From Henricia sp. BOLD:AAB3569 (lineage: Eukaryota > Echinodermata > Asteroidea > Spinulosida > Echinasteridae), in NCBI GenBank assembly GCA_037783545.1, contig JBBELK010000490.1, positions 372,001-436,000 on the forward strand: a stretch of 64,000 nucleotides of DNA, in the 5' to 3' direction. The position numbers and the translations under genes are program-made. Shown one piece after another: positions 6,751-44,400 of this stretch. The notes beneath the pieces are model-generated. The model saw nothing but the letters and a program-made list of their open reading frames with translations, ran no database searches and was not told the origin of the DNA. The first letter of the stretch is position 1, and every line of letters begins with the position of its first letter.

Positions 6751-6832
6751 TAACAAAACTTGGTTTTTCTAGATGAGTGCATGTAACATTTTTTTACACA
6801 AAACCAAACGCTGGTGACTTTCTACCATGCAG

Positions 6833-10108: not shown

Positions 10109-10167
10109 TTTTGCATATTGTTCCTATTTTGGAGTATTTGGATTTCTACACTTTTTGCCTTTACTAC

Positions 10168-12030: not shown

Positions 12031-12479
12031 CTACAGCCACAAAACGTCACATTTTATGTTCCTTTCTCTGCAAGTGCACGTTTTGGTACTCATACATGAT
12101 GTTGGGCATTTGCATGGAGGGGGCAGGTCATCGGGCCTGCACGATACTGGCATTATCACTGGTGTTATGCCAACATCCGTTGCTTCATACCCATACTGGA
12201 GTGGATCTGGTTTGGTGACTGCATGAGTTGGGGCTTGCAACCACATCTTACACTGCAGATATGCTCACTTTACATGTATACATGTGTTCTCGTAGCGTTG
12301 ATGAACAGCACAAGCTGGTTGAAGTCCAGTTCTTTCTTGGAGTTGTGGTACTGCTCCCATCGATATTTATCGAAAGTGGAACAGTCGGTCTTTTTTAATC
12401 CAGACACAGTTTTAGCATAGCTTGTTATCTGTGGTGACCGTTCTTTTACACCAAACCCTTCCAGTAGGGAAATTGGCTG

Positions 12480-13547: not shown

Positions 13548-13600
13548 TAAAGGCAAAAGGTGTAGAAATCCAAATACTCCAAAATAGGAACAATATGCAA

Positions 13601-13908
13601 TAATAATAATAATGGTGGATTCTTATATTGCGGGGTGCTCCTGGCGCTGTTACCAATATTACCGCTGCCATCAGGGAATCACCAGAACCATTTCGCTTCA
13701 ACTAGGTGGCTGCTGGCCAGGCGCTCAATCCTAACAGCAATTAGATTGTGGCATTCCCCTTAACAGCTTCCCAAATATCGCTTGGGTTGGCGAGGCAACT
13801 GGGATTAAGTGCCCAGGGACACAGGCGCGTTGATCATATAGTGGGGCTAGAACCCACCACCTTTGATTGGGAGTCCCGCTTCATACCCACTAGACCACAC
13901 GCGCTCCC
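13601..13908 (-). mobile_element. tRNA-headed SINE, fuller copy in right arm of P2
   Basis: On the minus strand it starts GGGAGCGCGTGTGGTCTAGT at 13908 and runs through the conserved body to a GGTAACAGCGCCAGGAGC tail and an (ATT)n run at about 13601-13615. It is the mirror of the shorter copy at 9948-10108. Confidence 0.8.
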
Positions 13909-15611
13909 ACAAAAGGTACAAAGGTAATATGATAAAGTGTCATATATATGTTGTGGCCTTGGTGGTACATGTATTATACAATTGTAGTGCGTAACATGCT
14001 GAAATTGGCAATTATCTTACAAACCATTTACTTTTGGATATGAAAATGTATTACTGACCCCCCCCCCCCCCCCCCCCCCATAATGTGGCAATTGCGCACA
14101 TTTTGAGTGGTCGGGCAACCTCCTAGGATGGGTAGTACTTTGCTCAAAAAGGGCGTGGCCCAAAAAAAGGGGCGTGGCCATTTCAGCTATTTCGCCGTCA
14201 GTGGAAAATGTGTTACCAACCAAATATTGTTCCTGGACCTTCAATTACTGGATTCTTGAAGAGTTTAAGGCTGGACATTAAATTGCATACATCACCACCA
14301 TGAGTTACTCTAGTAATGGGCGTTGTCGGGGCTTCTTCAGGTTCTTCCCAAACATTGATCTTAACCAAACTTGGTGACATCAAAGACATAGTATAAGAGG
14401 TGTGCACCCAAGAATGGCTTCATTGTGACGTCATCAGTTACGTCATTATAACACTTTAAAAATGCCTTAAGAGCGGAAAATTTCCGAAATATGCATTTCG
14501 TAAAACGCTTTCCTGTATGAACCCACATGACCCAGGGTCTTTATATTTTGCATAATTATATATCAGATCATGGGCTACAATGTTCTTTGTGTACGCATTT
14601 TTATCTGACCCTTCCTTCCCGGGTCAATCGAAGGTCAAAGTTCAGCCATTTCAAAATTCACATTTGTTGTGTTTTTGTGTACTTATGAAGCAATTTTAGC
14701 TATTAAAGTACGCTTGATTTTCATAAAACTAGGTACAGGCATGGGCCCCATCACAAACTTCCACCACCATGTAGAACATCACAATGACGTCAATGATTAC
14801 GTAATTATAATTATTTAAAAATGGCAAAAAGTGGGTCAATTGAAGGCCAAAGTTCAGCCAAGTCAACATTTCCGTATATACAGGGTGGATTTTTAAAAAC
14901 GAAACCGAGATATTATTGCTAATTGTAACTAAAGTAGGGCGCGTATGAATGAACGGGAGATATCATCTGTTAGGGTTGAATCTCCTCTTTAAAATGACAC
15001 CATGATCATGTCATTATGTTTTCGGTTGACTGAGCAGTGACCAGTGTTGTGCCAGGGGCCTAGTTTTAGATTTGACCTTTCTCAATGCGAGCAAACGTCG
15101 TACAAATAAATATTTACCGAAGATGTCTATTCCGTGTGCCCTGTGTGACACGGCGTCGACCGAGACGGTGACACGGTAACTTTTAACTGTGTCTACCACA
15201 GACGTGTAATTCTACAGAAGATGGTTTAACAAAAGGACATGTGAGTAGGATACAATCTTTTATGTTATTTCAGTCTTATTTAAGATAGTCCACTCTCTAC
15301 AAGAAAGTAATTGTATGTTATTGAGGGAATGTCGTAGTTTTGCCGTGAAGCATTCATTCCAATGTTTGTTTTCTTCCTTTTAGGTTTAGTAAGGTGCAAA
15401 GCTTAATATAGGCCTGATATCATTACGTCATTGTCAGGATTTTATTAAACCATCTTAAACAAATTGTTCCTTCTTGGCCAAACTCTTTTCAATCTTAACA
15501 AATTATGTGCTTTGATTTATACCTTTGATGACTTATATATGTAGGCCTATATAAGTTTTTTTTAGCAAACATCGGATTTCCACCCCAAATGTGAACAAAA
15601 CAAACTAAAAA

Positions 15612-16543
15612 CTAGAACTCCGTCTGTTTTATGAACAGAGCGTAGGGCTTTTTCACATTTTTTAAATTCAAAACTTGAAAAACGCCTAACCAGAATACAA
15701 TGATTAACTAAATTATCTATTTTTGAACAATTTTAAATTATAAGCCAAAAACTGTTTGACTAAAATTCACCCTTTTCATTTGTTTTTAAAGCTTGGCTAT
15801 ACCTAACCATAATGCTATGAGTCCCGTGTTGTTTATTATCACTTTAAAATTATAAGCCAACGAAGATTTGACCACTAGGAAACGAGGTCAAAGGTCAAGC
15901 AATGTGCGCGTGTGCATCATCATGACGTCATCAATTAACGACATTTGCTAGTGATCGTATGTGGCGCAGGAATCACGATCATAGGTCAATCGGCTGATTT
16001 GTTATGAATGTTTGAATATGGAAAACATTAAGTTGTATGCTCCTTTAATCTGATACCTGATGATGAACAGTTTTTGAGTTGTGTCAGTTTGCCTGGGTGG
16101 GGGAGTACTGCTATACAGATCTACCACTTCGAGGTGTTTGATGAACTGTGAGATACAAAGTTATGGTGCAGGTAAAAACCTTTGATTACTTAATTAGCTC
16201 CTTGAGGAGTATCATAACATGTAGGTTCAGGATTTATACTAAGAGAGTATTGAGCCAAATTAGTACAGAAGCCTTCATCGATTGAGAACAGATTTTTTTA
16301 GATTTGAAAATATGGCAATTTTCAGTTTTTGCACTTTTAAAAACATCAATTAGGTTACTGTAAAATTAGTACTATTTGTCATAATGTCACATGCCGTTAT
16401 AAATTAAATATTTAAAAAGTTTATCCTGAAAACGTAGTTTAGAGGCAAGTTTTATTTCCCCTTGCGAATTATAAACTGTTCATTTTTACTACATCAATAC
16501 TCATCTGCTGTCTCACGATGTAGTCAGCGAAAAAGATTGTTAA
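15612..16543 (+). repeat. E1: repeat unit in the loop of P3
   Basis: It starts at the arm boundary with AGAACTCCGTCTGTT..AACAGAGCGTAGGGC, which folds as a short hairpin, followed by TTTTTCACA. About 650 bp are shared in the same direction with E2 (17989-19260), including CACGATCATAGGTCAATCGG and CTGATGATGAACA. No coding found. Confidence 0.65.
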
Positions 16544-17988
16544 TTTTTAGTTTGTTTTGTTCACATTTGGGGTGGAAATCCGATGTTTGCTCAAAAAAAC
16601 TTATATAGGCCTACATATATAAGTCATCAAAGGTATAAATCAAAGCACATAATTTGTTAAGATTGAAAAGAGTTTGGCCAAGAAGGAACAATTTCGTAAT
16701 TAGATTTGTTCAAGATGGTTTAATAAAATCCTGACAATGACGTGATGATATCAGGCCTATATTAACTTTACACCTTACTAAACCTAAAACGAAGAAACCA
16801 AACATTGGAATGAATGCTTCACGGCAAAACTACGACATTCCCTCAATAACATACAATTACTTTCTTGTAGAGAGTGGACTCTCTTAAATAAGACTGAAAT
16901 AACATAAAATATTGTATCCTACTCACACATGTCCTTTTGTTAAACCATCTTCTGTAGAATTACACGTCCGTGGTAGACACAGTTAAAAGTTACCGTGTCA
17001 CCGTCTCGGTCGACGCCGTGTCACACAGGGCACACGGAATAGACAGCTACGGTAAAGATTTATTTGTACGACGTTTGCTCGCATTGAGAACGGTCAAATC
17101 TAAAACTAGGCCCCTGGCGTAACACTGGTCACTGCTCAGTCAACCGAAAACATAATGAAATGATCATGGTGTCATTTTAAAGAGGAGATTCAACCCTAAC
17201 AGATGATATCTCCCCTTCATTCATACGCGCCCTACTTTAGTTACAATTAGCAATAATATCTCGGTTTCGTTTTTTCAAATCCACCCTGTATATACGGAAA
17301 TGTTGACTTGGCTGAACTTTGGCCTTCAATTGACCCATGAAGGAAGGGTCAGATGAAATTGAGTACATAAAGCAAATTGTAGCGCAGGATCTGATATATA
17401 ATGTCTGCTATTTATGAAGATCCTGGGTCATGTGGTTTTATAGAGGGAAACATTTTACGAAATGCATTTTTTGCTAATTTTCATTGACGTCATGGTGATG
17501 TTCTACATGGTGATGGAAGTTTCTGATGGGGCCCATGCTTGTACCTAGTTTTATGAAAATCAAGCATGGTTGAATAGCTAATATCGCTTCATAAGTACAA
17601 ACAAATACAAAAAATGTGATTTTTGAATTGGCTGAACTTTGACCTTCGATTGACCCAGGAAGGAAGGGTCAGATGAAAATGCCTACACTAAGAACATTGA
17701 AGCTCATGATCTGATATAAATGTTTGCCAAATATGAAAACCCTGGGTCATGTGGTTTGGGCAAGGGAACCATTCGGCAATTTTCCGCTTTTTAGGCATAT
17801 TTAAAGTGTTATAATGACGTAACTGATGACGTTACAATGAAGCCATTCTTGGGTGCACACCTCTTATACTATGTCTTTGATGTCACCAAGTTTGGTTAAG
17901 ATCAATGTTTGGGAACAACCTGAAAAAGCGCCGACAACTCCCATGCGCTTTGTCTATGGGAAAACAATTAGAAGAAGAAGAAGAAGAA

Positions 17989-19260
17989 ACTAGAGCTACG
18001 TCTGTTCTATGAACAGGGCGTAGGGCTTTTTCACATTGTTACATTTAAAAACCTGAATAACGCCCAACCAGAATACAATGATTAACCAAATTTTCTATCT
18101 TTGAACAATTTGAAATTATAAGCAAAAAATTGTTTGACCAATGGTTATCGAGGTCAAAGGTCACCCTTTTCATTGTTTTTGTTATCGTATATGGGAAGGA
18201 ATTAGCGGTGGGAGTTACCGTTTATTTTTCTAAACGTTTAAACGTCAATTTTAACGTTCGTGTAAACGTTTAAACGAATAGTAAACATAACAAAAAGTGA
18301 AACTTATTACCGCGCTCGCAATAAAAGGTTGTTTGACCTGGTATCATGTGCGTTCGCGCGGCACCACTGACACTTCATTGAATTGGAGCATACATGATGC
18401 AGGCAACGAAAGTTCAGCTAGGCTTTGCTGTAATTTGATACTTTCGAGAAGTCACTCAAACCCAAAGTCAGCAACCAATGAGAGAATGGAATCAATAACA
18501 GTTCCAACGCAATTACGATCGTCGGCTCCACAGTGTTTATTGCCTTGCTTTGAATTCAAAAAGATGAAACCGTAAACCAGTAAAATCGCTTCCGCCCGCG
18601 AACGCAACTGTACATCTTCGGCTTGAAACTACAAAGGTTACCGACCGTTAGGCTCATCACAGCGGTATGCTGCCTGATTCTTACGAACAAAATTGCCGCT
18701 TTAGAAATTTTAGAATTGTTTAGATCTTTGAAATAGGGAGGATCGTTTTTTGACAAGTTGGTTTCGGATATCCGTTTAGCATTTTTGTAAACGGATAGTT
18801 AAATTTTGGTCGTTTAAACGTTTACACGTCGAAGCTCTTTTTTTTTAAGGTTGTAGCTCGTATTTTATATTTCATTTATTTTATTTTATTTTATGCACCT
18901 TTAATGTGATACGTGATGACGTCATTATGACATCATCAGTTAAATACCTTTGTCAATGACCGTATAAGGCACAGGAATCACGATCATAGGTCAATCGGCT
19001 GATTTGTTATGAATGTGTGAATATGGAAAACATTAAATTGTATGCTCCTTTAATCCGATACCTGATGATGAACATTTTTTGAGTTTGCCTGGGTGGTGAA
19101 ACTACTGCTATACAGATCTACTACTTCCAGGTGTTTGATGAACTGTGAGATACCAAGTCATGGTGCAGGTAAGATTCCTTTAACTTTTGATTACTTAATT
19201 AGTTCCGTGAGGAGTAAGACGTAGGTTCAGGATTTATACTAAGAGAGTCTGGAGACAAAT
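17989..19260 (+). repeat. E2: direct copy of E1 next to P3
   Basis: Directly after the (GAA)n end of P3 the hairpin start reappears as AGAGCTACGTCTGTT..AACAGGGCGTAGGGC, and the sequence follows E1 to about 18185, then again from about 18900 to 19260. The gap holds an insertion. E1 plus the right arm of P3, followed by E2 plus degraded modules at 19690-20340, looks like a tandem direct pair of one larger repeat. Confidence 0.6.
18190..18895. mobile_element. Insertion in E2 with AAACGTTTAAACG repeats
   Basis: The segment is absent from E1. Near both ends it carries CGTTTAAACG palindromic words in inverted arrangement (about 18228-18275 and 18818-18832), a pattern of subterminal repeats seen in many DNA transposons. 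Exact ends and target repeats could not be fixed. Open frames inside (for example 18297-18575) show no motif I know. Confidence 0.4.
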
Positions 19261-22238: not shown

Positions 22239-23852
22239 TTGTTGAGCACAAGGTCTTTTGTTTCTTGGGTAGCCTTCTCCTTCTACATGATCCTGACTTT
22301 ATTGGCGTCGTGATCAAGGAGGTCGTATTCGATTTCTGGTTCGATGTCACTGTGGAAAAGAAAAGAATATGTATTACAATATTCGTGTTTGTGAATCTTT
22401 ATCCTCATTGGCTGAAATGCAGTCACCTGGGGTTCACTAATATAAGGTAGTGCCTAAAATTTGTGAATGCGTGAACTACACACATCAAAATATCCTGTGC
22501 GTGTGTGAATAATTAATGTGTGCATGTTTCCTTGACTAGTGTTCCTGACCGGGCACTATTAGTCTCAAAAAGTACTGACAATTGTTTATGTGGTCTGGAG
22601 GTTCCAAGCTAATAGTCAGGTAATGGCAATGAGATATTCAAACTAGTGTGCCGAAATGAACTGCTTTTGTTGATCTGCATATTGTTGAAGTGCTTAAAAG
22701 TTGAAAATGATGTTGTTGAAAATGTTACATGTACTATTCAAATGGGTCTGGTTGGATTGTACCTTATTAAATTTAATTGTATTTACATTTTGGCAAGGGG
22801 TGTTATAAAACATATATATATTGACATATTTTGGTTACCAGTGGATGTCTGTGTCCCTTGGGCCCGTAAGCAGCAAGAGTGTCTTTGGGAAATAGGACCC
22901 TCTTGTGGTCACGCATATTTTTTGGGGGCATATGGATGTGTACTAGTGACCTCTTTGTCAGTCCATATACATGTATAATAATAATAATATGGAAGAGAAT
23001 AAATAAATGTAGTTTTTTTAGTGGGTAATTGTCTGATGAATTATGAAGTAAATAGTGTAGTGTAAGAGCCCCGCCATTAAATTCAAACTGGCCATCAATT
23101 TATGAAGTGACATAGGTTGTTAAAATTGCACATGTTGGTAGATGTTTGTTTGCAGCAAGGTACTATAAACATAGTCTGTCTTGTAAGGAATGCATTTGTA
23201 GTTTGTGTGGTGAATGGTGGAGTACTGATCAGTCAATTTTGTTTATTGTGGGGTTTGTTTCAAAGATGTGTGTGTTTAATTTGTGCATTGTCATGGTGAA
23301 TGGGAATAATTTCCAGTGTAGTTTTCGTAATGGCTTATTATATGTAAGCTTCTAGAGTGTGTCAATGTAAATGTCGCTGTTTGTAGTAGTGCTATGTTTC
23401 TGGAAATCAGGGAGAGTGACATTGTTGTCATTTAAAAAGAAAATAGTTAGTATGATTTTGTAATGTGGTTGTTGTGATTTATAAGTTGCTCTCAGTAGAG
23501 CCCTAGTTATTGCAATAGAAGTAAATAATTATGTGCATAGAGTGTAATTAAAAACATTTACTTTGGATGGATTTGTGTGATTGTCTTTGTGGCTTCCTTG
23601 TAGGTTGCTGTGATTATTAATGGCAGCATTTGTTGTATTTCTTGTACATTAGTTACTTCTAGTGATGTCAGGAGCATCTGTGTAGACACTTTGTAGTCTT
23701 GTTGGTCCCCTTTGCGGAGGAGAATAATTTTCTCTCTGTGGAAAGAAATTATGTACAGATGTTAACCATAGTTGATGCAAAAATCATCGTGTAAATTACA
23801 GGGGTTATAGTCATGTTGGAGTTGCTGGTTCATTCGGTATGGAATGACTGGT
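22239..23852. other. No gene recognised
   Basis: T- and G-rich on the plus strand. A 110-codon ATG frame at 22646-22978 has no motif I recognise and is hydrophobic in the way chance AT-rich frames are. A (TAA)-rich run lies near 22976-22990. Confidence 0.5.
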
Positions 23853-24682
23853 GGGTCATTCCGTGTGAAATCACCTAAAATTTCAGAAAATTGGTCGGGG
23901 TCCGACTCAGATTTGGACGAAACTTTTTCTAAAAATACCTCAACCTATGTCATGAACATGTACAAAATTGTAGAGGCCAACTCCACCTCGTTGCTGAGAT
24001 ATGACCTCCAGAAAATACCTACCCTACCCACTTTTTCCCAATTGTAGCCATGCCATTGAAGTTTTTTACATTTTTGGAGGCATGTAGCTCAAAAATGCTT
24101 GAGAATTTTTACCTGAAAATTGATATACACATAGATTGGCACCCAATCTGCATGATTCTGCTATCAAAAGTACGGTACCACGTTTCCTTTTTGAGATGTC
24201 GCTCCCCGAAAACTCTAATTTTTGATTATCGTGGTAACTTTGTTTCATATTTGGCTCCCCATGGTGCCCACATGGATAGTCGGATTGACTTCATATTTTA
24301 TATGCACACACACTAGGCACATGGGTTTGCTTCATATCAAGGACAAAGCAATTCCACCCTTTTTGGGGGTGTGGTCAAGGTTTAAAAGTGGGTCCGCAAA
24401 GAAAAATGGCAAAATGAGCCTCCTCTCCTGAGGGGTGGTTCCCCCGAAAGGTCACTACCCAAGCGATTGAAACTTACATATCTTAAAATACTGTATCCAA
24501 TCTACCTTTGGTATAAAATTTGGTTTGGTATCTTTTTTCATTCAAGGTTTTTTGAATTTTTGTAAAAGGTCAATATTTTGCTCAATAACGATAGTTTTAA
24601 TTGGATTATGCATAGTATACAACCTGTTACTATTAAAAGGAGAGCAATCTAATATGTCATATTTAATACCTGTTCAATTCTA

Positions 24683-24760
24683 CAGGTTGTCGGTTCGAAT
24701 CCAGGTGGTGGCAATGTGAGTGTGCCCTTAGGCAAGACACTTTGCTATTAGTCCGGGAGC
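24683..24760 (+). mobile_element. tRNA-SINE fragment inside P1, mirrored in the other arm
   Basis: A B box (GGTTCGAATCC) followed by GTGCCCTTAGGCAAGACACT is the typical junction of tRNA head and SINE body. The inverted copy lies at about 32030-32100. It was present before P1's arms diverged. Confidence 0.55.
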
Positions 24761-26359
24761 CCAGCAGGATTTCATCATAATTTTGAGTGCAAAAGGTTTG
24801 AAGTGTGGGATTGGTAGAAGTAGCTGGGACATCTCCCAAACGGGCTTTCTTAAGTGTCCCGGGTGGTGCGTTGGGAGGGGGCAGCCCCCTAAAGTCACCC
24901 AGAAATTCGGTTTCATCATAATTGAGAGTGCAAACCCAATTTTAGTACGGATCGTAAGGCCAACCTACACTGATTGAGAATTCGTTACTTAAGAAAGATA
25001 TATTTGGTGCGTTAGCCACTTAAGAAAGCAGTTAATTAGCGCTAATTAGACGTTTAATCATAATTCTGAGTGCAAAGACAAAACGTATGTCTATGTGCAC
25101 CCTACACACGGCTGAACACAAAAATGCCACTTAAGAAAATTTATGGTGGTGCGAACCCTACTTAAGAAAGGGTCAAAGGTTAATTAGGTCAAAGGTAACC
25201 AATATTCAAAATATGAAGAGCAAATTTCAAACGTGTTTGGATTAAAAGTTTATGACAAATCAATCACTGATTAACCATTTAAGAACAAGATATGTGGTGC
25301 TAAGTCTAATTAAGAAGGCCTTCAATTAGCACTAATTACACCTTTAATCATAATTACGAGTGCATCATTGAAACAAGTGCCAATGTGTTCCTATAACCAT
25401 ACAAAAGCAAAATCACCCGCTTAAGAAAATGTTCGGTGGTGCGAACCCTGCTTAAGAACGCCTGGAAATCCTGAAGCTCACGTGTAACAGTAAGCCCCGC
25501 CCCCTGCGTCTTCCCATTCCCGCCCTGCAGCCCGGCGCACTGTATCCCGGGCGCCCTGCACTGCCCACCTCCCGGACCGCATGACCCGGCGCCATGGTCC
25601 CTGGTTCCCTCTCCCCGTCCTGATCCCCACACCAATCCCATCTCCCCCACTCCCTCCCCTAGCCGGTCATGATACCTGCAAGTTACGGATATGTGCCGTT
25701 GTCAAACACGATTGCCTAAAGCATATGCCAAATTGAAGAATAATGTCGAGGTGGTTACGATGTATAAAAGGAGGGCACCAGCGCACCCCCACCCCCCTCC
25801 CCCTCCCCCCCCCCCCCCCCCGCTGAGCTACATCAGACCGATATCACCCAACCCGACGATCTGAGTGGGCTTGTCAGGAGTTGAAGTTCCGCTTTCATGA
25901 AATCCCCAGCACCCCCCACCCCGACTAAACCAGCCTACGCGCCACTAACTGTTCGTGATTTCCGATTTGCTGATAAATAATTTGTAACCTAAGAACAGCA
26001 TATCACGTGTATTAAGTGCTTAAGGACAACTTATTTAGCCAATTTATTGGTATCAATTAGAGTAATGCCCATAAGTTCAACACTTGATTCACAAACAAGC
26101 TAATGAACCAAATTCCACAAATTAAGAAGAAATATTTCCAGTGTCGGATCCAGCCTCATTAAAATACAGGAATACGATGGATATAAGGGGGTTATTTCCG
26201 TCCGTTTTGTGTTTACTGGTTAAAGATCGGTAATATTAGCTACCTTTGGTAATGTAGTGCGAGTTTTTATGTTTGTGTTGATTTTGGTTAACCTATCCGG
26301 ACCGGAACCAAGTCAGACCACATACTGCGAGCTTCCAGCCTAGCCCTCCGACGACTCCA

Positions 26360-26956
26360 GGGCCCATGTGCATAAAAGGCTACTAGTTTAGCTGCCAACT
26401 AGTGCTTAGTAAGATTATAAATTCCCTAGTTTATACCTACGGAGTTGGCAACTAATTTGTGTTGCATAAAACCTCACTAGGCACATTGCTTACTAGTTGC
26501 ATACTAGGACAATTTGGTTTGTAACTAATTTGGGTGCTATGGCCTTGGAGAGGAGGTGATTATGTCAGATACAATAGGCTTGTAGACAAGTTTATTGTGT
26601 TTGAGCTTCGAACCACATTCCAACTGAGCATAACTCATTTCTAAGGGTCTTTGTAACATTGCATTACTGCCCAGTACTTACAAGTAATCCGTCATTGTGA
26701 AGCAAAGCTTAGGCACAAAGTTGTTTAGCTCCATGATTCTACGAGCCATGTTGTCCAAAGGCAGACTGATTAGTTGTCATCTAGTGACTTAGAGGTACCC
26801 CAGATCAACTCTAACTTTTGCCAGAATTTTAGAATGTTACTATATCTAGTTGGGTTTTATGCATCACAATTAGTAATCAACTAGGCTTAGTATTAAGCAA
26901 CTTAAGTCCTTTTTAGTTGCCAACTAGGCCTAGTAGCCTTTTATGCACATGGGCCC
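26360..26956. mobile_element. Terminal-inverted-repeat element, copy 1 of a tandem pair
   Basis: The 597-bp unit begins GGGCCCATGTGCATAAAAGG and ends with the exact inverse; the inverted ends match over 27 bp. It lies in the left arm of P1 where the right arm has none. No coding; the body is AT-rich with CTAGT words. Confidence 0.8.
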
Positions 26957-26957
26957 T

Positions 26958-27552
26958 GGGCCCATGTGCATAAAAGGCTACTAGTTTAGCTGCTAACTAG
27001 TGCTTAGTAAGATTATAAATTCCCTAGTTTATACCTACGGAGTTGGCAACTAATTTGTGTTGCATAAAACCTCACTAGGCACATTGCTTACTAGTTGCAT
27101 ACTAGGACAATTTGGTTTGTAACTGATTTGGGTGCTATGGCCTTGGAGAGGAGGTGATTATGTCAGATACAATAGGCTTGTAGACAAGTTTATTGTGTTT
27201 GAGCTTCGAACCACATTCCAACTGAGCATAACTCATTTCTAAGGGTCTTTGTAACATTGCATTACTGCCCAGTACTTACAAGTAATCCGTCATTGTGAAG
27301 CAAAGCTTAGGCACAAAGTTGTTTAGCTCCATGATTCTACGAGCCATGTTGTCCAAAGGCAGACTGATTAGTTGTCATCTAGTGACTTAGAGGTACCCCA
27401 GATCAACTCTAAACTTTTGCCAGAATTTTAGAATGTTACTATATCTAGTTGGGTTTTATGCATCACAATTAGTAATCAACTAGGCTTAGTAAGCAACTTA
27501 AGTCCATTTTAGTTGCCAACTAGGCCTAGTAGCCTTTTATGCACATGGGCCC
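26958..27552. mobile_element. Terminal-inverted-repeat element, copy 2 of a tandem pair
   Basis: The unit is 595 bp, separated from copy 1 by one T, in the same orientation, and differs from it at only about half a dozen positions. This is a recent duplication, or a second insertion exactly at the end of the first. The pair replaces a TAT seen at the matching place in the right arm of P1. Confidence 0.8.
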
Positions 27553-27892
27553 TGATCTCTAGCACCCGGTCACACCGAGCTGCCCGAATAAAAAGAGATA
27601 GCCCATGCTTCTGACACTATGCGGTCCTGCCCAAGGACTTTTACAAGATCCAAGCCCCCACCAAGTCATCTAGTAACCACGCCTAGGACCACCCGCCGGC
27701 CGTAAACAGATCAGGAAATTCCACAAAATCACTCATACCCGCGCGCCCTCCGCCCTGAGCCGGACAATAGGACTGATCTATATCCTGACGTCCGTACAAT
27801 ACCAAGCCCTGGAATTCCATAGGGAAGAGTGTGTTGAGGTATAGGGGCGTTAGGGGGCAGTCCCTTTGCCACATATCGTGCTGGGTATACCC

Positions 27893-28075
27893 AGCCAGCC
27901 TTGATTAGCCAAACCGTGGTCAACCTCAGCCTGCAGCGACCGCTCTCACGCACAGAAACCAAAGTTCTGTCTCTCGGCATGAACTTTGCCATCCCGCTTA
28001 AGACAATCCCGGTCGAGGACATCATTCAATCAACAGAACTGGCCTTACAACACTTCAGCAAGACGACTGTATATA
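27893..28075 (+). pseudogene. Penelope-like RT fragment, left arm of P1
   Basis: The frame reads through VVNLSLQRPLSRTETKVLS and LGMNFAIPLKTIPVEDII, matching the conserved stretch just upstream of the RT core in Penelope-like elements (an FNLS..L...E..LL.KGL.F..P pattern). Only about 60 residues are present; the catalytic YxDD region and the GIY-YIG nuclease are absent. It appears to have been captured by P1 and duplicated with its arms. Confidence 0.6.
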
Positions 28076-28105
28076 GATGATGATGAAAATGGCATCTTAT
28101 ATAGA

Positions 28106-28430
28106 CTAAGATTACTGCCATCTTGTCCACCCCCACCTATATACCACTCTCTCTGGAAGGACCCCACACCAGCCACAGAACGCAATATTTCCAGTCAATT
28201 GCCGACTCTCCACATGCCAGGACAAGATGGCAGTAATCTTAGTCTGCTTTGTCCATGTCTACGGGAAAGATGGGTATGGATTGGTCTTGGCGTAGGGCTT
28301 GGAGTGCTGACAGTTCTTGCCTTGAGATGTTAGGTCTGGTTTGCTTGGCTTGCTTGAGTACTTGGTGGATTTGGAGTCGGACATAATGTGTAAAGCGCCA
28401 TGAGTATCTTGCAGGATAGATATGTGCGCT
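28106..28430. other. Central loop of P1
   Basis: This is the single-copy centre of the foldback. It holds a further inner inverted repeat (GACTAAGATTACTGCCATCT at about 28107 and its inverse near 28226-28246). Its right end is a SINE/LINE-like tail, GTAAAGCGCCATGAG followed by GTGCGCTATATAAGATG. Confidence 0.65.
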
Positions 28431-28452
28431 ATATAAGATGCCATTATCATCA

Positions 28453-28635
28453 TCATCTACGGTCGTCTTGCTGAGGTGTTGTGAGGCCAGTTCTAGTTCT
28501 GTTGACTGAATGATGTCCTCGACCGAGATGGCAAAGTTCATGCCGAGGGACAGAACTTTGGTTTCTGTGCGTGAGAGCGGTCGCTGCAGGCTGAGGTTGA
28601 CCACGGTTTGGCTAATCAAGGCTGGCTGGGACCTG
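28453..28635 (-). pseudogene. Penelope-like RT fragment, right arm of P1
   Basis: This is the mirror of 27893-28075 on the minus strand. It reads VVNLSLQRPLSRTETKVLS then MNFAISVEDIIQSTELELA, slightly shorter than the left copy because about five codons are missing between NFAI and SVEDII. The two copies have therefore diverged a little since the inverted duplication. Confidence 0.6.
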
Positions 28636-30595
28636 AAGGGCTTGGTATTATACGGACGTTAGGATATAGATCAGTCCTATTGTCCGGCTCAGGGCGGACT
28701 CGGGCGCGCGGGTACAAGTGATTTTGTGAAATTTCCTGATATGTTTACGGCCGGCGGGTGGTCCAAGGCTAGTGGTTACTAGATGACTTGGTGAGGGCTT
28801 GGATCCTGGAAAAGTGGCGGATAGTGTCAGAAGCATGGGCTACCCTCTTAACCCAGGTTATCTCGGGGTTAAATTTGTCTGTTACCCGGGTTATCTCGGG
28901 GTTAAAGTGCCGTGGGAAAAGGCCACTTGTTTAGGGCAGCTCGGTGTGACCGGGTGCTAGAGATATAGAGTCGTCGGAGGGTTAGGCTGGAAGCTCGCAG
29001 TATGTGGTATGACTTGTGGTTCCGGTCCGGATAGGTTAACCAAAATCAACACAAACATACAATTTCGCAAACCATTACCAAAGGTGGCTAATATTACCAA
29101 TCTTTAACTAGTTCCTAAACACAAAACGGACGGGAATAACCCCCTGAAATCCATCGTATTCCTGTATTTTAATGAGGCTGGATCCGCCACTGGGAATAAT
29201 TCTTCCTAATTTGTGGAATTTGGTTTATTAGCTTGTTTGTGAACTTGTGTTGAACTTGTGTTGAAGTGTTGAACTTGTGAGCGCGCATTACTCTAATTGA
29301 TACCAATAAATTGGCTAAATAAGTTGACCTTACGCACTTGATATGTTGTTCTTAGGTTACAAATCATTTATCAGCAAATCGGAAATCACGAAGTTAGTGG
29401 CGCTAAGCTGGTTTGGTCGGGGTGGGGGGGGGGGGGGGGATTTTCATGAAAGCGGAACTTCAACTCCTGACAAGCCCACTCAGATCGTCGGGTTGGGTGA
29501 TATCGGTCTGATGTAGCTCAGCGGGGGAGGGGGGGGGGGGGGGGTGGGAGTGCGCTGGTGCCCTCCTTTTATACATCGTAACCACCTCGACATTATTCTT
29601 CAATTTGGCATATGCTTTAGGCAATCGTGTTTGACAACGGCACATATCCGTAACTTGCAGGTATCATGACCGGCTAGGGGAGGGAGTGGGGGAGATGGGA
29701 TTGGTGTGGGGATCAGGACGGGGAGAGGGAACCAGGGACCATGGCGCCGGGTCATGCGGTCCGGGAGGTGGGCAGTGCAGGGCGCCCGGGATACAGTGCG
29801 CCGGGCTGCAGGGCGGGAATGGGAAGACGCAGGGGGCGGGGCTTACTGTTACACGTGACCCTGAGCTTCAGGATTTCCAGGCGTTCTTAAGCAGGGTTCG
29901 CACCACCGAACATTTTCTTAAGCGGGTGATTTTGCTTTTGTATGGTTATAGGAACACATTGGCACTTGTTTCAATGATGCACTCGTAATTATGATTAAAG
30001 GTGTAATTAGTGCTAATTGAAGGCCTTCTTAATTAGACTTAGCACCACATATCTTGTTCTTAAATGGTTAATCAATGATTGATTTGTCATAAACTTTTAA
30101 TCCAAACACGTTTGAAATTTGCTCTTCGTATTTTGAATATTGGTGACCTTTGACCTAATTAACCTTTGACCCTTTCTTAAGTAGGGTTCGCACCACCATA
30201 AATTTTCTTAAGTGGCATGTTTGTGTTCAGCCGTGTGTAGGGTGCACATAGACATACGTTTTTTCTTTGCACTCAGAATTATGATTAAACGTCTAATTAG
30301 CGCTAATTAACCGCTTTCTTAAGTGGCTAACGCACCAAATATATCTTTCTTAAGTAACGAATTCTCAATCAGTGTAGGTTGGCCTTACGATCCGTGCTAA
30401 AATTGGGTTTGCACTCTCAATTATGATGAAACCGAATTTTTTGGTGACTTTAGGGGGCTGCCCCCTCCCAACGCACCACCCGGGACACTTAAGAAAGCCC
30501 GTTTGGGAGATGTCCCAGCTACTTCTACCAATCCCACACTTCAAACCTTTTGCACTCAAAATTATGATGAAATCCTGCTGGGCTCCCGGACTATA

Positions 30596-32034
30596 TGGAC
30601 TATCTGGTTTCACCGGGAGCAAATGGATACCTACATGTACATGTATGAGAGTGAAAGTGTTCTGTGTTTGATTGTTCGGCTCTCATCATGAGAGCCCAAC
30701 AGGCAACCAGGGCTGTATGCTCTCCAGTGAGCCCAGTGACCAGGGGTAATCATGTTGGCACCTTGCTTTTTTAGTAGATTTGTGTGGATACTATAATATG
30801 TTATTGGGACACGACAACTGAGTGGTGGGGTGCACTCTGTATGCGGGATGAACTCTGTATGCCTTCAAAAGTGGGCACGTGCACCCACAATAGACCGTGT
30901 AAGTTGACCTCGAGAACGAGTGGGACTCTGTGAGACTCGTTGACTTCCGGAGACCTTAGATAGAAATTATATCACGCGTGGGGACAGTTTCGTTACCATT
31001 TTGACACCGCCTCAAAATTACCGATTCTGGGTCCACTATAAAAATCCTTAAAATCTCATTTATCACCTGTACGAAATGTTGATTGAGCAAAAAGTTAATA
31101 AAATTTTAAATATTTCTGTGTCTGACAAACTGGTAACCCTACACGTAATGGAAAAACCATACCGCCATGACACCGCGTCGCTGGTAGTCTGCAACTGGTG
31201 CAAAAATTTTGCCGCAGTGTAGTTGCCGCGAATTCAGTGCATGATGGCCGTTTCCAAAAGTACTCGATTCGGATTTATACGGTCTTTGCGATTTCCGGTG
31301 AAAAATCAAAGGAGATGAAAAATCACAGGATATCGTCACAAAGTTAAAACCCCATAATGCCATTCCCGACAGGTCTCCGGAAGTATGACCTGAAACGAGA
31401 CTAACAGTCTATAGGGGGTGGGGATATTTTATGTGTCGGCACCAGAGGGCCTTATCTTTGGTCGTCTTTTAAAAAAAATTGTCTTTGTGTTTTTTTGTTA
31501 GAATGCACATGGCATACAGAGAGACCACCCTCCCCCCTGTGACCAGTCTGATGAACAATATGCACACAAAGCTCATGACATAATCAAAGCATAATCAAAA
31601 ACTCTCTCCTAGGATCTTGATGATCCTTATGAAAAATGCATCTTTCCAAGGTAAAACTTAAGGTAATGAAACATCACTTTTTACTACATGTACCCTTCCA
31701 GGTACATGTACCACTGAGACCGGGATTCTAGCCACCAACCTGTGGATTTCACCAAAATCTTGGATTCATCAGTCTGTTACAGTACACCACTCAGTTGTCG
31801 TGCCCCAATAACATATTATAGTTCGCACACAAATCTACTACATGTATAAGCAAGGTGCCCACATGATTACCCCTGGTCACTGGGCTCACTGGAGAGCATA
31901 CATGTATAGCACTGGTTGCCTGTTAGACTCTCATGATGAGAGCCCAACAATTAAACACAGAACACTTTCACTCTCATACATGTACATGTAGGTACATGTA
32001 TCCATTTGCTCCCGGTGAAGCCAGGTAGTCCACA
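30596..32034. mobile_element. 1.44-kb foldback inserted in right arm of P1
   Basis: The ends GGACTATCTGGTTTCACCGG and (inverted) GGACTACCTGGCTTCACCGG start arms of about 230-250 bp (30596-30825 and 31785-32034). The left arm of P1 has the uninterrupted sequence at 24745-24760. The loop contains another, smaller inverted pair (CTTCCGGAGACC near 30950 against GGTCTCCGGAAG near 31374). No coding. Confidence 0.7.
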
Positions 32035-32917
32035 GCAAAGCATCTTGCCCAAGGGCACACTCACATTGCCATCACCTGGATTTGAACTGACAACCTGTAG
32101 AATTAAACAGGTATTAAATATGACATATTAGACTGCTCTCATAGTAACATGTTGAACACTGTATACATGTATAATGCAATTAAAACTAGCGTTTTTGAGC
32201 AATATATTGACCTTTTACAAATATTCAAAAAACCATGAAGGAAAAAGATACCAAACCAAATTTTATACCAAAGGTAGATTGGATACAGTATTTTAAGATA
32301 TGTAAGTTTCAATCGCTTGGGTAGTGACCTATCGGGGGAACCACCCCTCAGAAGAAGAGGCTCATTTTGCCATTTTTCTTTGCGGACCCACTTTTAAACC
32401 TTGACCACACCCCCAAAAAGGGTGGAATTGCTTTGTCCTTGATGCGAAGCAAACCCATGTGCCTAATGTGTGTGCATATAAAATATGAAGTCAATCCGAC
32501 CATCCATGTGGGCACCATGGGGAGCCAAAAATGAAATAAAGTTACCACGATAATCAAAAATTTGAGTTTTCGGGGAGCGACATTTCTAAAAGGAAACGTG
32601 GTACCGTACTTTTGATAACAGAATCATGCGGATTGGATGCCAATCTATGTGTATATCAATTTTCAGGTAAAAATTCCCAAGCATTTTTGAGCTACAGGCC
32701 TCCAAAAATGTAAAAAACTTCAATGGCACGGCTACGATTGGGAAAAAGTGGGTAGGGTAGGCATTTTCTGGAGGTCATATCTCAGTAATGAGTTGGAGTT
32801 GGCCCCTAACATTTTGTACATGTTCATGACATAGGTTGAGGTATTTTTAGAAAAAGTTTTGTCCAAATCCGAGTCGGACCCCTGACAACCTCTAGGTGAT
32901 TTCACACGGAATGACCC

Positions 32918-33944
32918 TGGTTTCAGTTAACAACAGAGGAGTATTTTAATAGTGAAGGGGGATTTTGACAACACAGACCATTTTTGTAGGAAATATCCTT
33001 GTCCGGTTTCTAAATGAAATAAATAAGTTTTTGTTAAGCTAAAAAGATTGAAAAAAATAGTTGAAAACCCTATGTACAAATGTACAGTATACACTTGTAA
33101 CTGGGATGGACATTCGTGTTACATTTTAGGCTGTCCTGTTATGAATGTACATATTGGAAATTTGTACACAGGGTTCTGAGAAAGGCATGTTGTCACACTA
33201 TTTGTAACTGTTTTGGGATCAATATATCTCTTCAGAATAACTAAAACGTTTTGTTATATTTTGATATTAGGCAAAGGTATTTTGTCGGACATATGGTCTG
33301 TGTTCCCAAAATGCCACCTTTACTGCATTGTTTTAAAACAGTGTCCCTTTAATGCGTTCTCCAACTCGTGTGTACCAAGGCCCTGTTAAAACCGGTCCCA
33401 TTTTACTGTGGAAAAAGCGACAGAAATCTTGTTGCCTCGTCTTTGCAGGCATTCCAATGTAATGTGCGCACATTGCGAACACCATACATGTATATACATT
33501 GTGATACATAAGTTTGGTAATGCTGACCGTGTCCGCGTTGGCGTTTGGCTCTTATTAAAAGCATACAGGGGAATCTGCTCAATTCATGTTTGTCAGCATG
33601 CATCCCTGTTATTATTTTGTAAAACTGTGGAGTAAATAAGATCGTTGGTGGGAAATTTAGTAGGAATGGGACAGTCACAATGAACAGAATCCAATACAAT
33701 TTTGGGAAAGTATAGAAATTAATTTGTTTTGCATAACATGACCAAATTAATTAAATAGCATCAAAATGATTTTGGTGTTTGTTTGCTAGGCGGAATGGTT
33801 GCGTCACTTTGGAGATTTGCGTGGATTTCCTCAGGGAATTGTAACTTTGCTTGGCAGAGTGGAAAATCCGTGGGATTGTATACTGTGTTTCTTCGTTGAA
33901 TGCTTCAATCATGAGGTCTTCAGTTTTTTCAGTAGTCTTTGAAA
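32918..33944. other. No gene recognised
   Basis: AT-rich, no exon or repeat boundary that I can support. Confidence 0.5.
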
Positions 33945-36965: not shown

Positions 36966-37854
36966 AAGGAATAGTGATCGATGTCTGACTTGTAAATTCT
37001 TACTCGTTAAATCATGGAGCTATCAACAGAGGAAGGAAAACATTTATCGTTGCTGCATGGCCCAGTTTCCGGACACGGATCTACATTTTGGTTACCCAAG
37101 TCCTCAATCTCGTGTGCACAGAGTTATGGCAAATGCAGCACGAGTGCTGCAAAAACACCATAAACATTATTTTTATAAATGGAATGTTTTAAGACTATCC
37201 TAACCTACTTTTATTCCCTTCATTAATGTATTTTTGTGTAAACAGGAAAATCCCACCAAAATTAGCTTGTCGTTTTGCTATGTTATGCATTTACTGCATT
37301 ATAGATGGGTGTCGAGATATTTTTGTTCGATCGGCCGGGTGCGTTACGCGTATTGCAGGCATGTTGTACGTGCATGCAAACGACTGGATACTGAAGTGTA
37401 CATTTTGCTTTCGAGCATGCAGTTTCTGTGGGGTTGTGCGTGTTTCAATGTGCGCTGACAAGGTCGCGTATGCTGACACATGGTACGGCCACGCGACTGT
37501 ATGTACTTCACACGCGGCTTACATGTGTTTCATGTTGCTTGGCAATTTATAAATGGGTGGAGCTTACTGGATCGGTCTATTTTATTGATTTAAACTGGGT
37601 ATCTTGTGTTTGAAGGAATAAGTTGAGATGACAAAATAATGGGAAATGAGAAAGGAGATGTCTGGTTATAAAACACCAATATTTTTGAATATTATAAACA
37701 CAAAAGCTGCAAAACACGAATCGTGACTGAACAACTGAAATGGAATTGTTTTATTTGGGAGTAGTTTGCATCTGATTTTTTTGCTTTTTTTGCACATCAA
37801 TCGCGTACGTCACTCACCACTGTGTATTTATGGCTGTTAATATGTACGCACTAT
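36966..37854. other. No gene recognised
   Basis: Open stretches of 90 and 108 codons on the plus strand (36931-37203, 37226-37552) have no motif I recognise and no splice support. The second lies in a local GC-richer patch. Confidence 0.45.
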
Positions 37855-40563: not shown

Positions 40564-41486
40564 TTATACTCGGACTCCGAAAAAGACCTTAAACAACAAA
40601 CATTGCATTTGGATTAGGCCACAGCCAAAAAGATGTTTTATTTAAAAAATGTCCTTATCTGCCGAATACCAAAAATGCAACGGGCAAACGGCCAAGAAAA
40701 AGCATACAATAAAAATGGGCACACCAGACCCAACCGGGGCATACCAAGCCCTTTATCATGGGCATACCGAGCCCGACCCGGGGCATACCAAGCCCTTTGT
40801 CATGGGCACTAGGCCCGAACCAGATTTATGTAAAAACCAACACTGGGCTTACAGGCCCAACCAAATCAAACTGAAATAAAAAACATATCCCGAATACAGT
40901 GTTGTGAATTGTTGGTGCAGTTGAGCCCCCACCGCGCTAGACATTCGGTCGGGGTGCTAGTCACATGATAACTTTCGTGCACTATGTCAACTGCACAAAA
41001 ACAGTGATAAAAGAAAGAGCATTGCGTTCGAGGCATGGAATGGGCTACTGGCGGTCTGAACTCGACCCGAAAATGCCACAGAACAACAGAGAAATTGGAG
41101 GAGAATGGGGGTGGTGGTGGGGCAAAATTGAACACAAAATTGTTGTTTATGTTGTTAAACAAACGGCTGTGACAAAGTGAAAGCTAAAGCTAAAGCCAAA
41201 GGTCGCGCGCTCGCTCCAGCTAGCCAGCAAAACAACAACGCGCATCGGCCACCTCTGATTGGACAGAAGTTATCAGCTCACTGCCCGGCCGTAACCAAAA
41301 CAAACCAGAGGGGGCGTGGATGCAGCGTTCGTTCCTAAGCCAAAGCCAATCACAAACTCGGACGGTGACCAAAAAAGGCAAAGCATGACCGACAAAAAGA
41401 TTTATGTCAAAATCAACAGCCCACGCGCGCGCGCGACCCAGATCTCGCCGAGCATAACCCCTTTTATCAACAAGTGATAAAAGGCT
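40564..41486 (+). mobile_element. Helitron-like element, internally deleted copy 1
   Basis: This copy consists of the first 516 bp (40564-41079) and the last 365 bp (41122-41486) of the element that follows it, joined by about 42 bp of other sequence. It starts TTATACTCGGACTCCG and ends in a perfect hairpin (41460-41484, stem CCTTTTATCA, loop ACAAG). Copy 2 begins at the very next base. The 365-bp end block contains inverted CCAAT boxes and a CG-rich run. No coding of a rep/helicase. Helitron or Helentron membership is inferred from the 3' hairpin and tandem arrangement only. Confidence 0.55.
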
Positions 41487-44400
41487 TTATACTCGGACTC
41501 CGAAAAAGACCTTAAACAACAAACATTGCATTTGGATTAGGCCACAGCCAAAAAGATGTTTTATTTAAAAAATGTCCTTATCTGCCGAATACCAAAAATG
41601 CAACGGGCAAACGGCCAAGAAAAAGCATACAATAAAAATGGGCACACCAGACCCAACCGGGGCATACCAAGCCCTTTATCATGGGCATACCGAGCCCGAC
41701 CCGGGGCATACCAAGCCCTTTGTCATGGGCACTAGGCCCGAACCAGATTTATGTAAAAACCAACACTGGGCTTACAGGCCCAACCAAATCAAACTGAAAT
41801 AAAAAACATATCCCGAATACAGTGTTGTGAATTGTTGGTGCAGTTGAGCCCCCACCGCGCTAGACATTCGGTCGGGGTGCTAGTCACATGATAACTTTCG
41901 TGCACTATGTCAACTGCACAAAAACAGTGATAAAAGAAAGAGCATTGCGTTCGAGGCATGGAATGGGCTACTGGCGGTCTGAACTCGACCCGAAAATGCC
42001 ACCCGCGCAAGGCGCGCCCCACAGAGAACAGACAGCCAGAGTCCACACCGACACTCCAAAAACAAAGCGGGAAATTAAAAAAAAAAACAAAGCCGTATAA
42101 GTTGGACACAAACGAACGTTGACCGAGCGGAGAAAAGCGGACGCCATCGCTGAGAAACAACGACAAATATTACCAAATGAACTAAAGGTGATGCAAGCAA
42201 AGAGCGCGAGGAGTCTTCGCGCACTGAGCTAGATTTGGCCTAACGAAAATTGTTCAGTGCTTGCGCTTCAACGCCGATTGAGAACGGGCCCCGAAGCAAA
42301 ACACCCGGGAGGACATCCGACCAGATCACAAAGGAGTTTGGAAAAGTCGACGACACGCAACGCCACAAAACTGCGATCCGTTGGCGGCGCCAACGGATCG
42401 CAGCCAACTTGGCGCAAGCAAAATTCGTTCACATCACGAACCGGGAACAAGCGTGAATGTCCTTCAACAACTCGGTCAAAATTGCCTGAAGATGGCAAAT
42501 TTCGGCACCGCCTCTGCCCTAGGGCCCTGGCCCACCGCGAATGCAAAACGGGAAAGTTGCACGTCTTTCCGATTGAGAGGAAACATTCCGTGCGAAAAAC
42601 ACAAACATCGGGCATCGGAGCCATTGTGCGCTTCCAAATTGCGATCCACAACTCCCTATCCGTACCTCCGCACGTACAACTTAAAAGACGCCCAAGGTTC
42701 GTTGGAAAACAAACGTCTCAGTTGCGGGCGCTACAGAGTACATAGAAAGGGGTGGGGGAAAACAGACCATGAATGGCAAAAATTTAACAATACAAACAAA
42801 AATAAATACCAGCTATCTTCGGGTAAAAGTAAAATGGTCCCAAGTTTGTTTGTTTAAAAGGGGGGCGGTTGGGGGTTTCAGGGTGGTGAGGGTGGAGGTG
42901 GGAGTTGGGGGCGTCGACAGAACGTTCAATGTTCGGCCAATCGTGGCAAAGAGACTGTAGGCAGTTGACTTTCCAAGCCGTTAGTTGAAGCAAAAAAGAT
43001 GATTCATGGACAATGCGGCAACTACCAAGTAGTCAAGCACGACACAAAGGGAAGGACAAGTAGGCCTACATGCGATTCTTTATTGCTAGAACGTCTGCAA
43101 ACAATATTTAATGAAATCATAAAAGACAAAAAAGTTAACGTATACTAGTACTAGGCCTACTAAATCTAAGGCAACCACATGTAGGATACCATGAAAAATT
43201 CAGTTTCCAAAACTGATAGCAGGAACGCGCTGGAGTCCAAGCCTGAATTTCCACCCGGTAGACAAATTGGTAAACAACACCGACACACAAAAACATTAAA
43301 ATGAAAAGCGCCACCAATCGTCTTTCAGAAAAATTAAAATCTCTTGATTTTAGGCGAAAAGAAATTTACTAAGTTGTAACTAATCATTAAAAAATATCCC
43401 GAGCACAAAAGCACCATTGGGTTCGAATCTCCCCCCAAAAAACAAACATCGCGTTCTCAAAGGGAAATGGCCCATGGCCCAAAACAACCACTCTCCTCGC
43501 TAGAAGCGGCCAAACCTCATGACGATGTTACAAACTTGAATGCTGCATGTGCCGCAGCAAAGCAAAAAGTACGCAGAAATGGCAAACATTTCCAACGCAG
43601 TACATAAAACGCCCTCGATCGTTTTCTGACAAACAAATGTACAAAATTCACGCGCGGAGCGCGCGACGTGATGTCACTGTCTGGTGACCTAGAAACGTCA
43701 ACGCCCCGCCCCGAAAATCTGAAGGACCAAATGTGTTTCTGACTCCGTTTCCTACGTCAGAAACTTCATTTCTTTTCAATAGCTACCTCATGTAAAGACA
43801 CCAAAAAAGGAATCGTGACACAAATCTCATTGGTGAACGTTTGGGATGGCTGCGGGCACGGAAACTCGCCAGTTAATTCATCAAACAATTTAAGTCAAAT
43901 TATTATTACATGCTTACTGATTTAAACAGCATGACAAAACATTTGCTTCACTTAGAAATTTATACAGGAACATGAACAAGGCTTTCGGTATCAGTCCATA
44001 CAGCACGCTGCTGGTCCTCGGAGGCCACGAAAAACCCCCTTTTTTTCATTTCTTTATATCTTTTTTAGGAGGAAACGTGGGTGCATCCTAGGATACCGAA
44101 AGAGGGTGCACTCCCTTTTTCCTTGCCATATACCTATTAAATTCTTAAACAGTAGAATTATTTCAAATCCACCCGGTCGTTTAGTGATGATCCAAACGAT
44201 GAGCAATGAGAGATATCGATACTGCGCAGATTCAACGTGGGCGGGGCTTAAACTTGTTCTAGTACTCAAAACAAATCCGGGTGCGAACAAGAACAACCGT
44301 GTCAATTATGCACAAACTTGTCTGAAATGAGGCCACAATCATGAAGGATTTGTTTTAAAAATCACAACCGGCACCAAAATTGTTTGTTGTTGAAAAACAA

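What the first reader, a model, noticed from the sequence alone, without database searches (positions are those of the whole stretch)
23853..32917. A 9-kb foldback element with exact 4-bp target repeats
Two arms of about 3 kb each, ends GGGTCATTCC, and TGGT directly outside both ends show that the whole palindrome moved, or was fixed, as one unit. Foldbacks this large are unusual, and no transposase is visible. Arm lengths after removal of later insertions agree closely, which supports a single inverted unit over a chance clash of repeats.
Basis: partly seen in the sequence, partly recalled or inferred. Interest (0 to 1): 0.75.

Follow-up and report, generated by a model that had tools for sequence, protein, structure and literature searches.

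The report
Two nested foldback transposons, not one
What looked like one giant 9-kb DNA palindrome is a common 3.2-kb jumping element with a second, unrelated palindromic jumping element sitting in one of its arms; it is an ordinary mobile-DNA nest, although the second family has oddly rigid internal spacing.

Summary
The coordinates, the GGGTCATTCC ends and the exact TGGT repeats are real. The 9-kb palindrome with 3-kb arms is not one unit.

FB-A (23853-24748 plus 30594-32917, 3.2 kb, ~1.1-kb arms) belongs to a family with 207 exact 21-nt ends in the genome. Its 4-bp target duplications match in 17 of 19 fetched copies and 10 of 10 further pairs. FB-B (24749-30593) is a second, unrelated foldback inserted in FB-A's left arm. 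It has 157 exact 21-nt ends and exact 3-bp duplications in 15 of 15 copies read.

Two other copies of this locus (C1245, C79) carry FB-A with the same flanks but no FB-B and a single TAT. They also carry a related foldback, FB-C, at a site empty in the window. FB-A therefore came first, FB-B later.

No transposase was found; movement in trans is inferred and the superfamilies are unresolved.

By-product: FB-B and FB-C arms share GGTGC at 117, 258 and 400, with no net indel over ~450 bp at ~51% identity. This suggests a spacing-constrained binding array, as in Galileo. Foldbacks are a known kind.

The parts
23849..23852 (.). left target duplication TGGT of FB-A
   Evidence: same locus, L009
23853..24748 (+). 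FB-A: first 896 bp of the left arm, beginning GGGTCATTCCGTGTGAAATCACC
   Evidence: 93.8-100% in one piece to 19 of 20 fetched copies; L025 matches in two pieces
24746..24748 (.). left target duplication TAT of FB-B, inside FB-A
   Evidence: a single TAT in L009/L010
24749..30593 (.). FB-B: second foldback element, 5,845 bp in this copy, ends TAGTCCGGGAGC..GCTCCCGGACTA
24749..25480 (+). outer part of the FB-B left arm, with GGTGC at 117, 258, 400, 548 and 690 bp from the end
29862..30593 (-). outer part of the FB-B right arm, 99% complementary to 24749-25480
25481..26357 (+). inner part of the FB-B left arm
   Evidence: 24749-26357 pairs with 28968-30593 at 94.1%
26357..27554 (+). two head-to-tail copies (98.7% alike) of a ~598-bp element with GGGCCCATGTGCATAAAAGGCTACTAG ends, inserted in the FB-B left arm; absent in the FB-B copy L031; end points uncertain by a few bases
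27555..28104 (+). innermost part of the FB-B left arm (27637-27810 and 27890-28104 are the stretches that pair)
28105..28428 (.). unpaired centre of FB-B
28429..28967 (-). innermost part of the FB-B right arm (28429-28630 and 28637-28815 are the stretches that pair)
30594..30596 (.). right target duplication TAT of FB-B
30594..30827 (+). FB-A: remainder of the left arm, displaced by FB-B
30828..31784 (+). FB-A: unpaired centre
31785..32917 (-). FB-A: right arm, ending GGAATGACCC
32918..32921 (.). right target duplication TGGT of FB-A
   Evidence: same locus, L009
23826..23848 (.). a further TGGT (23826-23829) followed by 19 bp (23830-23848) that look like two FB-A tips placed tip to tip; belonging to the story is uncertain

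Best explanation
The feature is a nest of two non-autonomous foldback DNA transposons. First a 3.2-kb FB-A element inserted here and duplicated TGGT (shown by its ends, its target duplication and its family). Later an FB-B element, with its own ~2.1-kb arms and TAGTCCGGGAGC ends, inserted into FB-A's left arm and duplicated TAT (shown by sister copies of the locus without FB-B). FB-B also holds a tandem pair of a ~598-bp element that one full-length copy, L031, lacks (shown; when it entered was not tested). No recognisable transposase was found in either, and both are most likely cut and pasted by enzymes supplied in trans that recognise the shared terminal sequences (inferred). In FB-B and its relative FB-C the arms carry GGTGC/TTAAGAA modules spaced about 142 bp, read here as repeated transposase-binding sites (inferred by analogy with Galileo).
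For: Family: 97 + 110 exact 21-nt FB-A ends and 79 + 78 exact 21-nt FB-B ends, with the reversed-pattern control 0 in both. Unit: of 20 fetched places with the FB-A end, 19 have a right end in the stretch held; 14 of these 19 are 3.12-3.23 kb and five are 3.70-8.05 kb with extra unmatched stretches. Target duplications: FB-A 17 of 19 (14 of 16 if copies at the same locus are counted once) and 10 of 10 further pairs; FB-B 15 of 15 (11, 3 read, the window). Natural empty site for FB-B: L009 and L010 match the window at 100% up to 24748 and at 99.8-99.9% from 30594 to 33941, with a single TAT. Reverse case: FB-C sits in L009/L073 with TAT on both sides, where the window at 37500-37502 has one TAT. 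No transposase: 8 of 25 listed reading frames scanned against Pfam, no credible match.
Against: No empty site was found for FB-A itself: none of 22 matches to the joined flanks spans the junction. No autonomous partner was found, so mobilisation in trans is inferred; 17 of 25 listed frames, and the frames of FB-C, were not scanned against Pfam. Two of 19 FB-A copies (L011, L022; 3 of 4 bases agree in each) and two of 10 FB-C pairs lack matching duplications. One of 20 fetched FB-A ends (L013) has no right end in the stretch held. The four copies of the locus could be alleles or duplications (C490 holds two of them); the test of order holds either way, but heterozygosity is not shown.
Confidence: 0.94

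Rival explanations
1. One 9-kb foldback with 3-kb arms that moved as a unit and was later invaded by small insertions.
For: Outer TGGT repeats are exact, and the inner arms are also inverted.
Against: None of the 20 fetched FB-A places shows the middle 5.8 kb at that position. Two sister copies of this very locus lack it with a single TAT. FB-B occurs elsewhere with its own ends and 3-bp duplications.
Confidence: 0.02
2. Assembly artefact: inverted contig ends or hairpin reads joined falsely.
For: Long palindromes are hard to assemble (general knowledge), and C490 holds two copies of the locus 342 kb apart, so some haplotype duplication in the assembly is possible.
Against: Exact target duplications at many unrelated places, and FB-B with TAT on both sides against sister copies with one TAT, are not what misjoining would give.
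Confidence: 0.03
3. The nest can now move as one composite through the outer FB-A ends, carrying FB-B.
For: The FB-A ends are intact. The second C490 copy of the locus also has an FB-B, starting 6,866 bp after the FB-A start there instead of 896 bp.
Against: Only one flanking context is known for the nest: both C490 copies share the same flanks, which is duplication or allelism, not transposition. The junction itself was not searched for genome-wide.
Confidence: 0.05

Closest known systems
Galileo (Drosophila, P superfamily, foldback-like)
   Same: Long terminal inverted repeats, internal tandem repeats in the arms, structural variation. Its tandem repeats hold further transposase-binding sites (PMC3688188, abstract and passages).
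   Different: 7-bp flanking duplications (PMC3573991, passages) against 4 bp (FB-A) and 3 bp (FB-B/FB-C). No P-type transposase seen in the frames scanned here.
Tetris (Drosophila virilis foldback)
   Same: Non-autonomous foldback with ~220-bp tandem repeats in the arms; autonomous partner not found (PMC4079207, abstract and passages).
   Different: 8-10 bp duplications, assigned to Mutator by its authors; here 3 and 4 bp.
Tc4 (C. elegans fold-back element)
   Same: Fold-back element with a short target duplication; the CTNAG target of Tc4 elements is named in PMC11071193 (passages). The 3-bp TNA duplication is recalled.
   Different: Only 2 of 15 FB-B duplications fit TNA; that the termini differ is recalled.
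Sola (4-bp) and Zator (3-bp) superfamilies
   Same: Duplication lengths match FB-A and FB-B respectively (their lengths are recalled; the paper is not held).
   Different: Termini not compared; no transposase found. The PF07592 search gave 0 here and 0 in the 14 controls, so it is uninformative.

Membership tests
Foldback-type DNA transposon (structural class) | long inverted arms making up most of the element | tested here: met
   FB-A ~1.1-kb arms in 3.2 kb; FB-B outer arms 24749-26357 and 28968-30593
Foldback-type DNA transposon (structural class) | fixed ends with target duplications at independent sites | tested here: met
Foldback-type DNA transposon (structural class) | repeated modules within the arms | tested here: inconclusive
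   FB-B and FB-C: met, ~142 bp. FB-A: not met, best autocorrelation 0.32
Mutator-type foldback (Tetris-like) | 8-10 bp target duplication | tested here: not met
   4 bp and 3 bp; definition from PMC4079207 passages
Galileo / P superfamily | 7-bp target duplication | tested here: not met
   definition from PMC3573991 passages
Tc4 | CTNAG target with TNA duplication | tested here: not met
   FB-B: TNA in 2 of 15
Ginger1/Ginger2 | TGTNR termini | tested here: not met
   ends are GGGTC and TAGTC; definition from PMC2836005 passages
Sola | 4-bp duplication (recalled) | tested here: met
   FB-A
Sola | Sola transposase in an autonomous partner | not tested
   no autonomous partner found; no family model used
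Zator | 3-bp duplication (recalled) | tested here: met
   FB-B 15 of 15; FB-C 8 of 10
Zator | DDE_Tnp_ISAZ013-like transposase (link recalled) | tested here: inconclusive
   PF07592: 0 in this genome, also 0 of 14 controls
Same superfamily, Repbase rule for non-autonomous elements (FB-B with FB-C) | same duplication length and terminal positions 1-11 aligned with at most 1 mismatch | tested here: met
   3 bp in both; 15 identical terminal bases; rule read in PMC4455052 passages

The most novel reading that the evidence does not exclude
FB-B and FB-C represent a foldback group whose arms are spacing-locked platforms. Modules around GGTGC with flanking TTAAGAA recur every 141-148 bp, at identical distances from the end (117, 258, 400) in two families whose sequence has otherwise drifted to about 51% identity, without net insertion or deletion. 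This would imply that the synaptic complex reads the arms as a fixed-register array (a multimeric transposase, or transposase plus phased nucleosomes), so that arm length in these elements is functional rather than a by-product.
Probability: 0.25. Interest if true: 0.55.

Novelty: new member of a known kind. Interest (0 to 1): 0.3.

Why it matters
It corrects a tempting misreading: nested foldbacks can mimic one giant palindrome, and sister copies of a locus settle it. The FB-B family looks young: all 40 scored ends are identical over 132 bp, and sister loci carry reciprocal insertions. It would therefore be good material for the question of why foldbacks have long arms, and the shared 117/258/400 spacing gives a direct, testable prediction.

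Tried and rejected
Single 9-kb unit: rejected. Assembly artefact: rejected on many independent target duplications.

Autonomous partner of FB-A: patterns that exclude the family's next base gave 4 places and 2 places. All six are FB-A relatives by sequence; they were compared with FB-A only and not scanned for genes. Autonomous partner of FB-B: end variants led to relatives. FB-C has no reading frame over 131 aa. The central 2.9 kb of a 6.6-kb relative on C9 is FB-C-like sequence plus what by eye is a minisatellite. The 9.1-kb FB-B copy on C674 is longer because of a 3.8-kb insertion with 26-bp inverted ends; its frames of 80 aa or more (longest 130 aa) were looked at by eye only. In some searches my letter codes (D, B) allowed the family base by mistake, which turned both into counts that include the family.

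Collapse of FB-A to its tips: 8 places at 4 loci against 0 for the reversed pattern. The three other loci lack a target duplication (read by eye), so a general collapse process is not supported. The same test for FB-B gave 0.

Arm homogenisation: in FB-A the 15 left arms form one clade (support 0.85), and within-copy left-right identity (95.6%) is about the same as between copies (95.4%), so none is seen. In FB-B the window copy is 99.0% within, against 96.1-97.6% to other arms over 843-880 bp and 98.2-98.5% to the 336-bp arm of L032. L032 is 99.4% within over 336 bp. L031 (97.7%) and L063 (98.0%) are no more alike within than between copies. Undecided. Of 20 fetched FB-A copies 15 were used there: L010, L019 and L024 dropped as repeats of a locus, L013 for lack of a right end, L025 as interrupted.

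Literal search for GGGTCATTCC in papers: 65 papers, none of the 20 listed about transposons by title. Penelope-like reading of the frame at 28239-28658 (-): by eye and recall only; no Pfam match up to E 1 and best PDB match E 0.071. A 775-bp stretch present in L009 and absent at window 33941 shows no similarity to FB-A, FB-B or FB-C.

Full report
SETTING. The window is G000:C490:372001-436000, from an unnamed assembly of 740.7 Mb in 2,104 contigs, eukaryotic by its size. No Rfam family reaches its threshold in the window.

OBSERVATION. The ends and the TGGT repeats are as stated. One search lists 24 inverted pairs between 23 and 34 kb. Self-comparison gives three main blocks of pairing: 23894-24746 with 32034-32886 (93.3%), 24749-26357 with 28968-30593 (94.1%), and 30596-30827 with 31785-32032 (88.8%), besides shorter ones near the centre. 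The third block does not fit a single palindrome: it pairs two stretches that both lie on the right.

FB-A. A search with the outer 128 bp gave 40 scored matches at 98-100% out of 343 candidates. Twenty places were fetched, 10 kb each. Nineteen have a right end in the stretch held; 14 of these are 3.12-3.23 kb and five are 3.70-8.05 kb. The 14 match the window as element positions 1-896 joined to 6742-9065, some with small gaps. So the unit is 3.2 kb, with arms of about 1.1 kb and a centre of about 0.96 kb. The 4-bp duplications match in 17 of 19, and in 10 of 10 pairs taken later from the listed part of a pattern search. In the whole genome 207 exact 21-nt ends were counted. Some pairs are shorter, such as 796 bp on C3, which has a matching ACTT duplication.

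FB-B. The stretch 24749-30593 begins TAGTCCGGGAGC and ends with its reverse complement. A search with its first 132 bp gave 40 scored matches, all 100% identical, out of 224 candidates. A 21-nt pattern counts 157 ends. In the 100 places that call lists I count 38 adjacent convergent pairs, 33 of them 4.5-6.1 kb apart and the rest 0.46, 1.27, 3.22, 3.59 and 9.12 kb. Exact 3-bp duplications were seen in 11 of 11 copies fetched, in three odd-sized ones, and in the window. Of the four odd-sized copies fetched, three are internal-deletion forms (L032, L064, L065) and the longest (L063) has a 3.8-kb insert.

ORDER OF EVENTS. L009 (C1245) and L010 (C79) are copies of this same locus. They match the window at 100% on the left to 24748, and at 99.8-99.9% from 30594 to 33941, but lack FB-B and have one TAT where the window has TAT on both sides. 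A joined-flank search finds four copies of the locus: two on C490, one on C1245 and one on C79. The second C490 copy also holds FB-B ends, 5,849 bp apart. Whether these are alleles or duplications is not decided. No copy of the locus without FB-A was found: 22 matches, none across the junction. FB-A therefore came first and FB-B later. FB-B in the window also holds two head-to-tail copies of a ~598-bp element that the full-length FB-B copy L031 lacks.

FB-C. The C1245 sister locus carries a 3,224-bp relative of FB-B, flanked by TAT on both sides, where the window has one TAT at 37500-37502. The C79 copy has the same pair of ends 3,224 bp apart. Ends of this kind number 93 within 3 mismatches of a related 31-nt pattern, in several variants. 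Three-base duplications match in 8 of 10 pairs. Sister copies of one locus thus differ reciprocally by two foldback insertions, besides a 775-bp stretch unrelated to them.

MODULES. By BLAST, FB-B and FB-C are alike only over their first 53 bp (79%), apart from one 30-bp match in the interior. Yet laid side by side without gaps from the end they match at 51-52% over positions 56-450, against a mean of 26% and a maximum of 35-36% at 120 other offsets, and the match stops near 450. GGTGC stands at 117, 258 and 400 in both, with further copies at 548 and 690 in FB-B; TTAAGA stands at 272 and 414 in both. Of three further variants with the TGAGATTT end, one has GGTGCG at 117 (L066), one at 141 (L068) and one has none (L067); the two variants with the other end (L070, L071) have none in the first 160 bp. 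So the pattern is not universal. My reading is a constrained array of binding sites. In Galileo, sites within the tandem repeats of the arms bind the transposase domain, and the authors propose that they supply specificity (PMC3688188, abstract and passages).

ARMS. In a tree of 15 copies the FB-A left arms form one clade, so the arms have evolved apart since the family's founder. FB-B arms show no clear side difference. The window copy's arms are more alike (99.0%) than to any other arm compared, and L032 agrees over 336 bp, but L031 and L063 do not show this.

MECHANISM. No reading frame scanned has a transposase match (8 of 25 listed frames), and FB-C has none over 131 aa. Cut-and-paste movement in trans is inferred from fixed ends, constant duplication lengths, empty and filled sites, and internal-deletion derivatives. 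Duplication lengths argue against Mutator-type and Galileo-type foldbacks as described in the papers read in passages, and the ends against Ginger. Sola (4 bp) and Zator (3 bp) are candidates by recalled duplication lengths only.

UNEXPLAINED. Just left of FB-A stands TGGT plus 19 bp that read as two FB-A tips end to end, then TGGT and FB-A (23826-23852). The genome holds such tip pairs at 4 loci against 0 for the reversed pattern, but only this one lies between matching duplications. A near-complete deletion of an earlier FB-A at the same site is possible but not shown.

PRINT. Seven paper searches did not show these families in the listed results; most subscription papers and Repbase are not in the library, so no claim of absence from print is made.

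CHECK.

Noticed in passing
23826-23852: A further TGGT followed by 19 bp resembling two FB-A tips head to head (TCATTC..GGAATGAC), directly beside the intact FB-A; present in all four copies of the locus.
   Followed up: partly
C490:395.8-405.0 kb and 737.8-753.0 kb, C1245, C79: The locus is present four times in the assembly, twice on one contig 342 kb apart; duplication or uncollapsed haplotypes.
   Followed up: partly
L009:8726-10000 with L073; window 37500-37502: FB-C foldback present in the sister loci on C1245 and C79, empty site in the window.
   Followed up: yes
8318-18138: Cluster of further inverted repeats (for example 14832-15614 with 16541-17337 at 95.6%, 12030-12473 with 13101-13548 at 95.4%): perhaps more nested foldback or inverted elements.
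   Followed up: no
51265-51786: 522-bp palindrome (92.6%), perhaps a hairpin-type short element.
   Followed up: no
40564-46588: Direct repeats of 516 bp at 100% (40564-41079 and 41487-42002) and 370 bp at 99.5% (41122-41491 and 46219-46588).
   Followed up: no
28239-28658 (-): 139-aa open stretch near the FB-B centre that by eye and recall resembles the leader of Penelope-like reverse transcriptases; no Pfam or PDB support.
   Followed up: partly
L063:153-3996: 3.8-kb insertion with 26-bp inverted ends inside an FB-B arm on C674; frames looked at by eye only.
   Followed up: partly
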